From: Psychroflexus maritimus
GTDB taxonomy: Bacteria > Bacteroidota > Bacteroidia > Flavobacteriales > Flavobacteriaceae
Direction of reading: 5' to 3'
NCBI RefSeq assembly: GCF_011089875.1
Contig: NZ_JAANAS010000001.1
Location: 186,001 to 250,000, forward strand
Length of the DNA: 64,000 bases
In this document: positions 25,752 through 29,977 of the stretch, piece after piece
Layout: each line of letters opens with the position of its first letter
Position numbering within the stretch: the stretch's first letter is position 1
Made by a program: the position numbers and the translations under genes
Notes under the pieces: model-generated
Told to the model about the DNA's origin: nothing
Seen by the model: the letters and a program-made list of their open reading frames with translations, nothing else
Database searches by the model: none

Positions 25752-26123
25752 ATGAAATCATATCCTTTAACAGTGTTGCTTTTATTAACTCTAAATTTTG
25801 CTTTTGGGCAGTCTTACGATGAAGTTGAAGAAGAAGAATTAAAAGAAATCATTCAAATAAGAAAAGAATTAGAACGCAATCATCAAATCAAAGAATCTTA
25901 TAAGATTCAGGTTTTTTCTGGCAACTTAGAAGAAGCCAAAAAAGTGAAGAAAGAATTTGACAACAACAAAGACTTTGTTTGGGATAGTAAGATGATTTTT
26001 GAGACGCCCAATTATAAAGTTTGGGTAGGCCACTACAGAAATCGTTTAGAAGCAGATCGTGCCTTAAAGGTAATTATTGAGGAATTTGATAATGCTTTGA
26101 TATTAAAACCCGGAAGAGGCTAA
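25752..26123 (+). CDS. Exported SPOR-domain protein
   Basis: A 123-residue protein with an N-terminal signal peptide (hydrophobic residues 5-17, probable cleavage after AFG-Q, residue 19), a charged helical stretch (EVEEEELKEIIQIRKELERNHQ, read in parts), and a C-terminal SPOR fold recognisable from YKIQVFSGN, then NYKVWVGHYRNRLEADRAL. SPOR domains bind denuded glycan strands at division sites, so a periplasmic role in peptidoglycan recognition is inferred. It is the first plus-strand gene after the act operon. The next gene is 87 bp away and may have its own start, so its link to the arsenosugar-like cluster is uncertain. Confidence 0.85.
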   Translation: MKSYPLTVLLLLTLNFAFGQSYDEVEEEELKEIIQIRKELERNHQIKESYKIQVFSGNLEEAKKVKKEFDNNKDFVWDSKMIFETPNYKVWVGHYRNRLEADRALKVIIEEFDNALILKPGRG

Positions 26124-26210: not shown

Positions 26211-26543
26211 ATGGCTGATTACTACGAACAAAAAGACCTTAGAAATTTTGGTAAAATCACCGAATGGTCTGAAGAATTAGGTGAAAAATTTTTCGATTAT
26301 TATTCAAAAGTTTTTGAAGAAGGTAAACTAACAGGAAGGGAAAAATCACTAATTGCCTTAGCCGTAGCTCACGTAGTGAAATGCCCTTATTGTATTGATG
26401 CTTATACCAAAGATGGTTTACAGCGAGGGATCACTAAAGAAGAGATGATGGAAGCTGTGCATACTGGCGCGGCTATGGAAGCTGGTGCCAACCTTGTACA
26501 CGCCACACAAATGATGAAAAAATACAAAAAATTAAGTCATTAA
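26211..26543 (+). CDS. AhpD-like / carboxymuconolactone decarboxylase family protein, arsenosugar-cluster associated
   Basis: A 110-residue all-helical protein of the CMD/AhpD superfamily. The redox pair is present in KCPYCIDAYTKDG. In AhpD proper the CxxC is preceded at -12 by Glu and followed at +4 by His; here those places are Ser and Tyr, so the usual proton relay is absent. NCBI families name a group of such proteins 'arsenosugar biosynthesis-associated peroxidase-like'; the assignment here rests on neighbourhood: arsS begins 4 bp after its stop. It could act as a thiol-disulphide carrier for the radical SAM enzyme or for arsenic species; that is inference. Confidence 0.8.
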   Translation: MADYYEQKDLRNFGKITEWSEELGEKFFDYYSKVFEEGKLTGREKSLIALAVAHVVKCPYCIDAYTKDGLQRGITKEEMMEAVHTGAAMEAGANLVHATQMMKKYKKLSH

Positions 26544-26547
26544 AAGC

Positions 26548-27600
26548 ATGTCCAAAAAATCATTAAAAGCTAGAGAAAACTTGATGGCGAAAGCCAATGA
26601 GCAACTCAAATTTTTAAGCAATGGCGTTTTTGAAGACGATTTACCCACTTTTAAAACAAAATTAAGTGAAGAAAATCAGTTTCCATTAAAGCCAAATAAA
26701 TTAGAAATTCTGCAGATTAATTTGGGGTATATGTGCAATCAAGTATGCGCTCATTGCCATGTTGATGCTGGACCAGACCGGAAAGAAATCATGACAAAAT
26801 CAACCATGAAATCTTGCCTAAAAGTTATTCAAGAAACAGAAGCTCATACCTTAGATTTAACTGGGGGCGCCCCAGAAATGAATCCACACTTTAGGTGGTT
26901 TGTGGAAGAAGCATCAAAGGCGGGAATCAAAGATTTTATTGTCCGTTCTAATTTAACCATTATCGAGGCGAACAAAAGATACAAGGACTTACCCGATTTT
27001 TTTAAGAAACATAAAGTTCATGTGGTAAGTTCAATGCCGCATTGGACAGAAGATAAAACAGACCACCAACGTGGGAAAGGCGTATTCAACAAATCAATTA
27101 AAGCCTTAAAAAAGCTAAATGAGGTAGGCTACGGAATGCCTAATTCTTCCTTAAAACTAGATTTGGTTTACAACCCTTCAGGAGCCTTTTTACCTACCAA
27201 CCAAGAAGTTATGCAGCGTGATTTTAAAGAAAAATTAATCGCCAATTTTGACATTCATTTTCATCAACTTTTTGCTATTACCAACCTGCCAATATCAAGA
27301 TTTTTAGATTATCTAATTGCTTCAGAAAATTATGAAGATTACATGTTTAGTTTAGTTGAAGCCTTTAATCCCGCAGCCGTAATAAATGTCATGTGCAGAA
27401 ATACACTTTCGGTAAGTTGGGATGGATTTTTGTACGATTGTGATTTTAATCAGATGCTAGAAATGAAGATTGATTCAAAAATTCAGCACATCAACAATTA
27501 CAACGAGACAAAAATTCAAGATAGAGCAATTAAAATCCACCAACATTGTTATGGTTGCACCGCTGGTGCAGGAAGTTCTTGCCAAGGAAATATTACCTAA
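26548..27600 (+). CDS. arsS: Radical SAM/Cys-rich protein of the ArsS family
   Basis: ArsS-family enzymes are radical SAM proteins proposed to attach the 5'-deoxyadenosyl group to dimethylarsenic, the first step toward arsenosugars. The 350-residue protein has the cluster motif CNQVCAHCH (CX3CX2C) near residue 63, followed by DLTGGAPEMN, a typical SAM-binding GGE-like strand. The C-terminal Cys-rich tail includes MCRNTLSVSWDGFLYDCDFNQM and HCYGCTAGAGSSCQG (each read in short pieces), characteristic of the family. Cys stands where some homologues have selenocysteine. The next gene starts 1 bp after its stop. No arsM methyltransferase is in the window, so the substrate supply is unclear. Confidence 0.88.
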   Translation: MSKKSLKARENLMAKANEQLKFLSNGVFEDDLPTFKTKLSEENQFPLKPNKLEILQINLGYMCNQVCAHCHVDAGPDRKEIMTKSTMKSCLKVIQETEAHTLDLTGGAPEMNPHFRWFVEEASKAGIKDFIVRSNLTIIEANKRYKDLPDFFKKHKVHVVSSMPHWTEDKTDHQRGKGVFNKSIKALKKLNEVGYGMPNSSLKLDLVYNPSGAFLPTNQEVMQRDFKEKLIANFDIHFHQLFAITNLPISRFLDYLIASENYEDYMFSLVEAFNPAAVINVMCRNTLSVSWDGFLYDCDFNQMLEMKIDSKIQHINNYNETKIQDRAIKIHQHCYGCTAGAGSSCQGNIT

Positions 27601-27601
27601 A

Positions 27602-28099
27602 ATGAAAACCTATTTAAGCTTTTTACTAATCCTTTTTAGTGCTTTTCAAATCGTATATTCGCAAGAGCTAGACGAGGCCTTGAAAAAGTATCTAAAAAAT
27701 GATATACCTATAATTTCTGTTGAAGAGTTACAGGCAAATTACAAGGATTATCTAATTCTTGATGCAAGAGCTATTGAAGAATTTAAAGTGAGTAAATTAG
27801 ATCAATCAGTTTGGGTGGGTTATGAAAATTTTTCAGCTGAAAGACTAAAGCAACTTTCACTTGAAAAAAACAAAAAAATAGTGGTGTATTGCTCGATTGG
27901 TGTTCGTTCAGAAGAAATAGCTAGAACGATTAAAGAAGATTTTGCAGTAGAAACATACAACCTATATGGGGGCATTTTTTTATGGAAAAACAAAGGATTT
28001 ACCGTGGTTAATAAGGAAAATAAACCCACCAATAAAGTGCACGGATATTCCAGAAAATGGGGCAGCTATCTAATTCAAGCAGAAGTAGTTTATGAATAA
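27602..28099 (+). CDS. Exported rhodanese-like protein
   Basis: A 165-residue protein with a signal peptide (hydrophobic residues 4-18, cleavage near IVYSQ) and one rhodanese domain. The active-site loop is intact: VVYCSIGVRSEE, with Cys as sulphur acceptor and the CxxGxRS shape. The motif DARAIEEF and the terminal GGIFLWKNKG are also typical. Rhodaneses move sulphane sulphur; in this neighbourhood a role handling arsenic or sulphur chemistry outside the cytoplasm is possible but unproven. An open frame extends upstream into arsS, but ATG 27602, 1 bp after the arsS stop, gives the signal peptide. The stop overlaps the next start by 8 bp. Confidence 0.88.
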   Translation: MKTYLSFLLILFSAFQIVYSQELDEALKKYLKNDIPIISVEELQANYKDYLILDARAIEEFKVSKLDQSVWVGYENFSAERLKQLSLEKNKKIVVYCSIGVRSEEIARTIKEDFAVETYNLYGGIFLWKNKGFTVVNKENKPTNKVHGYSRKWGSYLIQAEVVYE

Positions 28100-28697
28100 T
28101 GAAAACCTGGTGATTGTATTTACAAAAAACCCTATACTTGGTAAATGTAAAACACGTTTAGCTAAAAGTATTGGTCAAAAAAAAGCGCTTTACGTTTATA
28201 AACATTTACTTGAACACACCCGTAACACCCTTTCAAAAACACCCTATCAAATAGCTGTGTTTTATAACGAATTCATAGATTGGAACGATGCATGGAGCAA
28301 ACAGTATCAAAAAAAAATACAAGCTAATGGCCACCTTGGTAAAAAAATGAAAAAAGCGTTTGAATGGGCATTTGAACAAGACTACAAAAAAGTTGTGCTA
28401 ATTGGTACAGATTTACTAGATTTAGAAACTACCGACTTAAAAAAAGGCTTTGAACTACTGACTACTAATGAGTTAGTAATTGGACCAGCAGATGACGGTG
28501 GTTACTATTTAATTGGCATGAAAAGGCTTATAAATGAAGCTTTTACCTTAAAAAAATGGAGCACCGATAGCGTACTTACAAACACCTTAGAAGATTGTGA
28601 AGCTTATCAGGTAAAATTATTAGACTATAAGAATGATATTGATAATTTAGAAGACCTAGAAAAATCAACTTACGATTTAAAAAAGATAGGTTTCTAA
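28092..28697 (+). CDS. TIGR04282-type glycosyltransferase (DUF2064, rSAM-associated transferase 1)
   Basis: A 201-residue GT-A-fold nucleotidyl/glycosyl transferase. The N-terminal substrate loop is TKNPILGKCKTRLA, the metal-site region is GTDLLDLETTDL, and GPADDGGYYLIGMK is the highly conserved signature of the family. This family occurs beside ArsS-type radical SAM genes and is annotated as arsenosugar biosynthesis glycosyltransferase, although its reaction has not to my knowledge been shown directly. The start overlaps the rhodanese stop by 8 bp, so translation is probably coupled. The partner TIGR04283 transferase is not here. About 140 bp without recognisable genes follow. Confidence 0.87.
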   Translation: MNNENLVIVFTKNPILGKCKTRLAKSIGQKKALYVYKHLLEHTRNTLSKTPYQIAVFYNEFIDWNDAWSKQYQKKIQANGHLGKKMKKAFEWAFEQDYKKVVLIGTDLLDLETTDLKKGFELLTTNELVIGPADDGGYYLIGMKRLINEAFTLKKWSTDSVLTNTLEDCEAYQVKLLDYKNDIDNLEDLEKSTYDLKKIGF

Positions 28698-28837: not shown

Positions 28838-29977
28838 ATGCTTAATAAGCGTTTACTTATAAAAAACTTGCTAGCCCATAATGACGAAAACAGTTTTTAT
28901 GACAAAAAATTACGTTTAGACTTGGGAAGTCAAGAGGGAAAAGCAAAATTTTTAAAGCACGTCTGTAGCCTTTCTAATACCAACCCTGAAAACAATGCTT
29001 ATTTAGTTATTGGGGTGAGGGATGACGACAATGAAATTTTGGGTGTTGATTTTTTTGATGATTCTAAAATTCAAAACCTAGTTAACGCTTATCTTGAAAA
29101 CCCACCCCTTATAGCTTATGAAAACATTCCTTTTCCACATCTTAAAGATAAAAAAGTAGTGGGCTTAGTTAGTATAAGACCAAAAAACGATTTCAGTATT
29201 TGTTCCTTGAGAAAAAATATATGGAAATACTATGGAGGAACAGTATTTATGCGTGAAGGCAGCATAAGCAAACCCAAAGCTTTTGACATAGAAATAAAAT
29301 CTTTCAATAAAAACTTTGTTGATTCCATAGAGAAACATTCCAACAACACCATAAAATATACCCTAGACAATGTCTTTGATTTCATGAAAAAAAATCAAAA
29401 CTACCAACCTAATTACGAAGTCTTTAAAGAGTATTTTGTTTTGTGCTGGGCAGGTAAAAGAAAAAAAACGAAAGATAGAAATTTCTATTCACGGGTAAAT
29501 ATTGAATTAATAAATGAACAAGTAAAGTTGTTTTATTCAGATTATGATGAAGTAGAAATTGAAATTGGCAAGAACTACTTTAAGATTCTTGAATATGTTC
29601 ATTTAGGTTTAGAGCGTGATTTCAAATACTACCCCTTAGAAAAAGTAAGAATAGACTTTACCAACAACATGGCCTACGAAATCACTTCAGAAGTAGTATT
29701 TAAAGCACCAAAATTTGACAAAAAGACATTGTTTCATTTTTACAATATCAACAATTCACTTTTTGAAAAAATGAAAAATAATGAAAAACTAGTAACGCAT
29801 GAACTCAATCACTTATTAAACCTTCCATCACTTTACCTTATCTGTTATTTAAATGACTTTGAAGATGCTTTAACACAACTAGAAGAAGTAAAACCCTTCT
29901 TAAAAAAATATAGTCCAGAAGCTTATCAGCGTCAAAAAGAAAAAATGAGAATTTTAAGAAAACTTAGGTATAATTAA
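28838..29977 (+). CDS. AlbA_2 (Schlafen-like) domain protein with unrecognised C-terminal half
   Basis: A 379-residue cytoplasmic protein. Residues about 15-145 look like an AlbA_2 / Schlafen-type domain: LRLDLGSQEGKAKFLKHVCSL, then AYLVIGVRDDDNEILGVD, and GTVFMREGSISKP, which is the usual order (acidic start, GV.D..G.I.G., ..R.GS...). Such domains occur in putative nucleic-acid-binding regulators and in some defence proteins. Residues about 150-379 match nothing I can name; they are rich in Lys, Tyr, Phe and acidic residues and end in a predicted helical, basic tail. No helicase or protease domain is fused. It stands alone between the arsS-like cluster and a metallophosphoesterase, 22 bp before the latter. 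Confidence 0.7.
   Translation: MLNKRLLIKNLLAHNDENSFYDKKLRLDLGSQEGKAKFLKHVCSLSNTNPENNAYLVIGVRDDDNEILGVDFFDDSKIQNLVNAYLENPPLIAYENIPFPHLKDKKVVGLVSIRPKNDFSICSLRKNIWKYYGGTVFMREGSISKPKAFDIEIKSFNKNFVDSIEKHSNNTIKYTLDNVFDFMKKNQNYQPNYEVFKEYFVLCWAGKRKKTKDRNFYSRVNIELINEQVKLFYSDYDEVEIEIGKNYFKILEYVHLGLERDFKYYPLEKVRIDFTNNMAYEITSEVVFKAPKFDKKTLFHFYNINNSLFEKMKNNEKLVTHELNHLLNLPSLYLICYLNDFEDALTQLEEVKPFLKKYSPEAYQRQKEKMRILRKLRYN

What the first reader, a model, noticed from the sequence alone, without database searches (positions are those of the whole stretch)
26211..28697. Arsenosugar-like cluster lacking arsM
AhpD-like, ArsS, rhodanese and TIGR04282 transferase genes are tightly packed (gaps 4 bp, 1 bp, then an 8-bp overlap), but no ArsM methyltransferase or TIGR04283 transferase is within the window. 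Either arsM is elsewhere, or this radical SAM system acts on another substrate, with the exported rhodanese as an unusual partner.
Basis: partly seen in the sequence, partly recalled or inferred. Interest (0 to 1): 0.55.

Follow-up and report, generated by a model that had tools for sequence, protein, structure and literature searches.

The report
Arsenosugar gene cluster without methylation enzyme
A bacterium of the Flavobacteriaceae carries genes thought to attach arsenic to a sugar-like molecule but lacks the gene that first methylates the arsenic, and some of its relatives share this gap, which suggests that they may use methylated arsenic made by other organisms.

Summary
In detail: AhpD-like, ArsS, rhodanese and TIGR04282 genes lie at 26211-28697, gaps 4 and 1 bp, overlap 8 bp, all over NCBI cut-offs. 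No ArsM of either kind and no TIGR04283 passes cut-off in the 99.97% complete genome. Nor is it alone: 9 of 16 ArsS-bearing genomes of the genus and 12 of 93 in a 120-genome family sample show no ArsM. The usual cluster adds PNP, ArsM and TIGR04283; the rhodanese is an ordinary member, and PNP is kept here on another contig. ArsS keeps 188 of 194 near-invariant residues, which argues for unchanged chemistry. Best reading: a reduced arsenosugar-type cluster fed with dimethylarsenic made elsewhere. In the family sample ArsM-less arsS loci carry a SusCD importer cassette in 7 of 12 cases against 8 of 81; this is post hoc, kinship-aware pairs are too few to prove it, and the window's own locus lacks the cassette. 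ArsS may be under relaxed constraint, so slow decay remains a rival. New variant of a known kind.

The parts
25752..26123 (+). SPOR-domain protein, upstream neighbour; recurs beside AhpD in the genus, probably not part of the pathway
   Evidence: PF05036 23.8 of 21 bits; synteny
26211..26543 (+). AhpD-like CxxC protein, arsenosugar-associated peroxidase-like family TIGR04169; proposed thiol reductase/peroxidase for the arsenical
   Evidence: slow evolution relative to flanking genes in most pairs
26548..27600 (+). ArsS radical SAM enzyme (TIGR04167; PF04055 + DUF3641), CxxxCxxC at residues 63/67/70
27602..28099 (+). rhodanese-domain protein NF045521; hydrophobic N-terminus read by eye as a signal peptide; CSIGVR loop read by eye as the active site
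28092..28697 (+). TIGR04282/DUF2064 protein; model resembles CofC-type nucleotidylyltransferases
28838..29977 (+). SLFN_AlbA_2/DUF5929 protein, downstream neighbour here and in G139 (L138); probably not part of the pathway

Best explanation
It is a reduced arsenosugar-type cluster whose ArsS still adenosylates dimethylarsenite, but the dimethylarsenic comes from outside the cell (algae or arsM-bearing neighbours), not from an endogenous ArsM. Proposed path: (1) dimethylarsinate enters and is reduced to the trivalent form, perhaps with help of the CxxC AhpD-like protein (inferred); (2) ArsS joins it to the 5'-deoxyadenosyl group (reported for ArsS elsewhere; here inferred from family and kept residues); (3) PNP, encoded on another contig, removes adenine, leaving an arsenoribose-1-phosphate (inferred from family and neighbourhood); (4) TIGR04282, nucleotidylyltransferase-like by fold, activates that sugar phosphate (inferred); (5) the usual last enzyme TIGR04283 is missing, so the end product is either cut short or finished by another glycosyltransferase (unknown). 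Shown: gene content, absences in the assembly, conservation, model of TIGR04282. Not shown: any reaction, uptake or product.
For: Absence of ArsM recurs with the rest kept: 9 of 16 ArsS+ genomes of the genus, G137 in a single contig among them, and 12 of 93 ArsS+ of the family sample. In the 8 of the 11 other ArsM-less family genomes that I read further, 8 of 8 hold rhodanese-TIGR04282-PNP-(..)-TIGR04283 without ArsM. NF038099 ArsM was never seen without ArsS (72 of 72). Among ArsS+ genomes without NF038099, 9 of 21 have a classical ArsM (one, G105, with an in-frame TAA), against 3 of 72 with it (Fisher p 4e-5, not corrected for kinship): the methylating step looks exchangeable. ArsS keeps 188 of 194 near-invariant columns; 47 ArsM-linked ArsS left out in turn depart at 0-8. 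PNP ortholog kept (85.6% to G133's in-cluster PNP). SusC/SusD cassette near arsS in 7 of 12 ArsM-less genomes against 8 of 81 others (p 3.5e-4, post hoc).
Against: No uptake route is identified in the window species; its window lacks the SusCD cassette. The SusCD association does not hold up as a kinship-aware test: 5 supported independent pairs, same way 2.6, other way 0.2, no difference 2.1. TIGR04283 is missing too, so the pathway is incomplete at both ends. ArsS evolves faster against flanking genes in ArsM-less pairs (ratios 1.59, 1.14, 0.50; 1.06 in a pair of which one member has a classical ArsM) than in ArsM+ pairs (0.29-0.49), which fits relaxed constraint. Acr3, ArsR and an ArsC-like protein already stand for inorganic arsenic.
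Confidence: 0.5

Rival explanations
1. The cluster is a remnant under slow decay: ArsM and TIGR04283 are gone, and ArsS, rhodanese and TIGR04282 persist with weakened function.
For: Higher ArsS/flank rate ratios in ArsM-less pairs; long ArsS branch of the window in the family tree (0.68, median 0.12), though it is there the only row of its genus; DUF547-TIGR04283 pair missing behind the same upstream genes that precede it in G133.
Against: All four frames intact and packed; the same core stands in the nine ArsM-less genomes of the genus; AhpD, rhodanese and TIGR04282 show no consistent shift in rate (AhpD 0.24, 0.00, 0.77, 0.48 against 0.00-0.27); near-invariant cysteines kept.
Confidence: 0.22
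2. ArsS here acts on another substrate (inorganic arsenite, a monomethyl arsenical, or another nucleophile), so ArsM is not needed.
For: The ArsM-less state is old or repeated in the genus; ArsS rate shift.
Against: Six departures in 194 near-invariant columns, none a cysteine, within the 0-8 seen for ArsM-linked ArsS; neighbours are those of the arsenosugar cluster.
Confidence: 0.13
3. An unrecognised methyltransferase of the genome does the work of ArsM.
For: One methyltransferase (L011, 256 aa; Pfam Methyltransf_11) has no NCBI family over cut-off and weak ArsM-like scores (37.9 and 31.6 bits).
Against: It has 2 cysteines against 10 in a relative's arsenosugar ArsM; the other three weak hits are UbiE, RlmD and PrmC.
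Confidence: 0.1
4. arsM lies in an assembly gap.
For: 126 contigs.
Against: 99.97% complete; ArsM is missing also in eight other ArsS+ genomes of the genus, the single-contig G137 among them; in ArsM+ mates it sits between ArsS and rhodanese (15-20 bp after ArsS in five of six; the predicted start overlaps ArsS in the sixth), where the window has 1 bp.
Confidence: 0.03

Closest known systems
Arsenosugar biosynthesis gene set of bacteria (NCBI families NF038099 ArsM, TIGR04167 ArsS, TIGR04169, TIGR04282, TIGR04283)
   Same: ArsS, AhpD-like, TIGR04282 and a PNP ortholog present; order AhpD-ArsS-rhodanese-TIGR04282 as in many relatives
   Different: No ArsM, no TIGR04283; PNP unlinked
Synechocystis ArsM/ArsS pathway (Xue et al. 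2019; seen only as cited in passages of PMC8552651, the paper itself is not held)
   Same: ArsS radical SAM enzyme (family equivalence assumed by name, not compared here)
   Different: There ArsS is reported to work with ArsM; here no ArsM was found
Arsinothricin cluster arsQML (PMC8552651, passages seen)
   Same: Radical SAM enzyme forming an As-C bond, with an ArsM
   Different: [quoted passage not shown] no ArsS is mentioned by name in that paper's text
CofC-type nucleotidylyltransferases (PDB 7p97, 2i5e, 6bwg)
   Same: Fold of TIGR04282 (Foldseek E 5e-9 to 8e-9); sub-threshold CofC family hits
   Different: 15-16% identity; substrate not known

Membership tests
ArsS (TIGR04167) | score over curated cut-off | tested here: met
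   441.9 bits, cut-off 300
ArsS (TIGR04167) | radical SAM CxxxCxxC and C-terminal cysteines conserved | tested here: met
   C63, C67, C70 and C334, C337, C345 invariant in a 28-row alignment with the window first; all 8 near-invariant cysteines kept
ArsS (TIGR04167) | adenosylates dimethylarsenite | not testable with these tools
   needs an enzyme assay
Arsenosugar biosynthesis pathway | ArsM methyltransferase in the genome | tested here: not met
Arsenosugar biosynthesis pathway | TIGR04283 glycosyltransferase in the genome | tested here: not met
   best 61.7 of 182 bits; none at E 1e-35
Arsenosugar biosynthesis pathway | TIGR04169 and TIGR04282 partners | tested here: met
Arsenosugar biosynthesis pathway | purine nucleoside phosphorylase of the cluster | tested here: met
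   present but unlinked, on C82
Arsenosugar biosynthesis pathway | makes an arsenosugar | not testable with these tools
   needs arsenic speciation
TIGR04282 as glycosyltransferase (its NCBI name) | nearest folds are glycosyltransferases | tested here: inconclusive
   best match 3cgx is labelled putative nucleotide-diphospho-sugar transferase (uncharacterised); the next named ones are nucleotidylyltransferases (3-phosphoglycerate guanylyltransferase, CofC-like, FbiD, IspD, GlmU); a glycosyltransferase, ArnC, appears at rank 44 of 50 shown

The most novel reading that the evidence does not exclude
ArsM-less ArsS clusters of Flavobacteriaceae are an organoarsenic salvage system: they take up methylated or sugar-bound arsenic made by algae or other bacteria, in several lineages through a dedicated SusC/SusD importer with a symporter-like protein and a phosphoesterase placed inside the arsS cluster, and rebuild it into arsenic nucleotides, sugars or lipids. 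Arsenic sugar synthesis would then be shared between community members.
Probability: 0.3. Interest if true: 0.75.

Novelty: new variant of a known kind. Interest (0 to 1): 0.48.

Why it matters
If true, it splits arsenosugar synthesis into a methylation step and an adenosylation step that can live in different organisms, makes cross-feeding of methylated arsenic directly testable, and warns that surveys of arsM alone miss organisms with ArsS. It also offers testable roles for two poorly understood partners: TIGR04282 (nucleotidylyltransferase) and the SusCD cassette.

Tried and rejected
ArsM elsewhere in the genome: not found; the weak hits are UbiE, RlmD, PrmC and a 2-cysteine methyltransferase. 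Rhodanese as an odd partner: rejected. A substrate switch visible in ArsS residues: no such sign. In one search the six ArsM+ genus mates were themselves part of the reference set of 53 loci, which favours them; one search repeats the count with 47 reference loci and is the one quoted. The ArsS structure model was too weak to use (mean pLDDT 70.6). No solved structure matches ArsS by phmmer at E 0.01. Literature: arsS with arsM and arsenic (none), arsS with arsenosugar, radical SAM and arsM (none), arsenosugar with radical SAM (2 papers), with arsM, with dimethylarsinoyl, with flavobacter, with demethylation or marine bacteria, with gene cluster and cyanobacteri, with SusC or TonB (the five listed hold no 'arsenosugar'), TIGR04283 (none). 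Beyond the listings I saw passages of PMC8552651, PMC12608789, PMC13171826 and PMC12159101 only; none of what I saw describes ArsS without ArsM. The library holds open-licence papers only. Single gain against several losses of arsM in the genus could not be decided: in a midpoint-rooted tree of a flanking protein the ArsM+ genomes are one nested clade; their ArsM is one clade, not joined to that of Polaribacter, in a poorly resolved tree. G002 and G057 are very long branches (perhaps miscalled frames) and G058's ArsS locus holds N stretches; all were kept in the counts.

Full report
Observation. The four genes stand as described: AhpD-like 26211-26543, ArsS 26548-27600, rhodanese 27602-28099, TIGR04282 28092-28697, gaps 4 and 1 bp, overlap 8 bp. 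Each passes its NCBI cut-off: TIGR04169 180.5/120, TIGR04167 441.9/300, NF045521 173.5/145, TIGR04282 199.4/134.

Absences in the genome. The window is C38:186001-250000 of a 2.59-Mb assembly, 126 contigs, 99.97% complete. TIGR04283: 11 weak hits, best 61.7 of 182 bits. Classical ArsM NF008823: 4 weak hits, best 35.9 of 263. Arsenosugar ArsM NF038099: none at E 1e-15; a relative's ArsM as query gives 23.8 bits at best. The four weak NF008823 hits are UbiE, RlmD, PrmC and a methyltransferase without an NCBI family over cut-off, with 2 cysteines. PNP, the usual next gene, is on C82, 85.6% identical to the in-cluster PNP of G133, so it is kept but unlinked. On that stretch the window's genome has the same six upstream genes that precede DUF547-TIGR04283 in G133, but not the pair. 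A separate ArsR-DUF6428-Acr3-ArsC-like operon lies on the same contig as the window (Acr3 409 of 282.8 bits; the ArsC-like protein, 44.9 of 174.3 bits, is under its cut-off).

Taxonomy. The genome shares family f1 with G098 and G036, whose loci match L018 (a MAG titled Flavobacteriaceae bacterium) and L029 (Cochleicola gelatinilyticus) at 99-100% over several genes; the latter is in Flavobacteriaceae. So the family is Flavobacteriaceae by inference; the genus is unnamed.

Usual cluster. In 80 named loci (the best 80 of at least 590), found within the held flanks (10 kb or less): AhpD in 78, TIGR04282 in 65, rhodanese in 54, NF038099-type ArsM in 47 (loci cut by contig ends are not set aside, so these are lower bounds). 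A common order is AhpD-ArsS-rhodanese-TIGR04282-PNP-ArsM, then often a sterol-desaturase-like gene, DUF547 and TIGR04283.

How common is ArsS without ArsM. Family sample, 120 genomes, one per genus, the window's own included: ArsS over cut-off 93, NF038099 72, NF008823 14, TIGR04283 85. All 72 with NF038099 have ArsS. Of 21 ArsS+ without it, 9 have a classical ArsM (one, G105, with an in-frame TAA) and 12 have neither at E 1e-25 (NF008823) or 1e-15 (NF038099); among the 72, 3 have a classical one too (Fisher p 4e-5, not corrected for kinship). TIGR04283 is present in 9 of the 12, 64 of 72, 7 of 9 and 5 of 27 ArsS- genomes. I read further downstream or at the TIGR04283 site in 8 of the 11 ArsM-less genomes other than the window's; 8 of 8 hold the rest of the cluster without ArsM. 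The three not read further are G043, G058 and G083. Genus, 27 genomes: 16 ArsS+, 6 with NF038099 over cut-off, one (G140) with a classical ArsM, 9 with neither. The genus was searched with NF038099 only, at a threshold that also caught all 14 classical cases of the family sample. The ArsM+ genomes are one nested clade in a midpoint-rooted tree of a flanking protein.

Selection. With 47 ArsM-linked loci outside the genus as reference, 194 ArsS columns are at least 97% fixed. The window departs at 6, its ArsM-less or classical-ArsM genus mates at 1-10, its ArsM+ mates at 2-3; the reference loci, left out in turn, at 0-8; the ArsM-less family genomes at 0-10 except G058 (35; N stretches), the classical-only ones at 1-7. 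All 8 near-invariant cysteines are kept in the window (one search had counted with the six ArsM+ mates inside the reference). Distances of ArsS over those of the flanking ACIII proteins: ArsM-less pairs 1.59, 1.14, 0.50, and 1.06 for a pair with one classical ArsM; ArsM+ pairs 0.29, 0.39, 0.49, 0.33, 0.45 (not all independent). AhpD (0.24, 0.00, 0.77, 0.48 against 0.00-0.27), rhodanese and TIGR04282 show no consistent shift. Few pairs, so this is suggestive only; it fits relaxed constraint or changed use.

Import cassette. In some loci a SusC/RagA receptor, a SusD-like lipoprotein, a protein with a weak, below-cut-off symporter match and a metallophosphoesterase lie in or beside the arsS cluster, led by a second DUF2064 protein that is under the TIGR04282 cut-off (annotated on L029). 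I noticed it in maps of the ArsM-less genomes and counted afterwards, so the test is post hoc. SusC plus SusD within about 9 kb of ArsS: 7 of 11 ArsM-less genomes other than the window's, 8 of 72 with NF038099, 0 of 9 with classical ArsM only (G002 and G105 hold the symporter-like and phosphoesterase genes without SusCD). The window has none. With the window 7 of 12 against 8 of 81, p 3.5e-4, not corrected for kinship. On an ArsS tree the two traits change 10 and 8 times; among 5 well-supported independent pairs they go the same way in 2.6, opposite in 0.2, no difference in 2.1, which cannot reach significance. The genus loci L130-L144 were not searched for SusCD by sequence, nor was the window's whole genome.

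TIGR04282. Model pLDDT 93.5. Nearest folds: 3cgx, a sequence relative labelled putative nucleotide-diphospho-sugar transferase; then 3-phosphoglycerate guanylyltransferase, CofC-like MM2497, FbiD Rv2983, IspD, GlmU; a glycosyltransferase, ArnC, at rank 44. K20, R22, D107 and G131, P132, D135-Y139 are invariant in 34 rows. I read this as a nucleotidylyltransferase acting on the sugar-1-phosphate that PNP would make, against the name glycosyltransferase. The role is inferred.

Literature. PMC8552651 (passages): Synechocystis ArsS functions with ArsM in the first steps of arsenosugar synthesis. PMC12159101 (passages): adenosylation of arsenic by a radical SAM enzyme, citing Cheng et al. 2021 on ArsS. 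The primary paper of Xue et al. is not held; that of Cheng et al. was not looked up.

Other loci. A plasmid of Hymenobacter volaticus has ArsS beside TIGR04283 with no arsM annotated within 7 kb (the gene table of that collection is incomplete); a Pseudanabaena plasmid has arsM near arsS.

Verdict. A reduced arsenosugar-type cluster. ArsM-independent use of external dimethylarsenic is the best reading (0.5); decay (0.22), other substrate (0.13), hidden methyltransferase (0.1) and assembly gap (0.03) remain. The mended counts did not call for other odds.

Noticed in passing
L029:11080-18762; L145, L147, L150-L153, L155: SusC/SusD + symporter-like + metallophosphoesterase cassette, mostly with a second DUF2064 protein, inside or beside arsS clusters; commoner in the ArsM-less genomes of the family sample.
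   Followed up: partly
L186:8430-10906 (G000:C38, about 44.4-46.9 kb): Separate ars operon: ArsR, DUF6428, Acr3, ArsC-like protein, on the same contig as the window.
   Followed up: partly
L262 (Hymenobacter volaticus plasmid NZ_CP095063.1): ArsS beside TIGR04283, an epimerase/dehydratase-family protein and an SDR oxidoreductase on a plasmid, with no arsM annotated within 7 kb (incomplete gene table).
   Followed up: no
L177 against L174: DUF547-TIGR04283 pair absent in the window's genome downstream of the same upstream genes as in G133; the PNP gene lies on this stretch.
   Followed up: yes
G105:C1:464811-465596: Classical ArsM gene with one in-frame TAA, in a genome that has ArsS but no NF038099 ArsM.
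   Followed up: no
window:26211-26543: The AhpD-like protein is the slowest-evolving cluster gene in most genus pairs, and NCBI has an ArsM-AhpD fusion selenoprotein family, NF041537, hinting at cooperation with arsenic methylation.
   Followed up: partly
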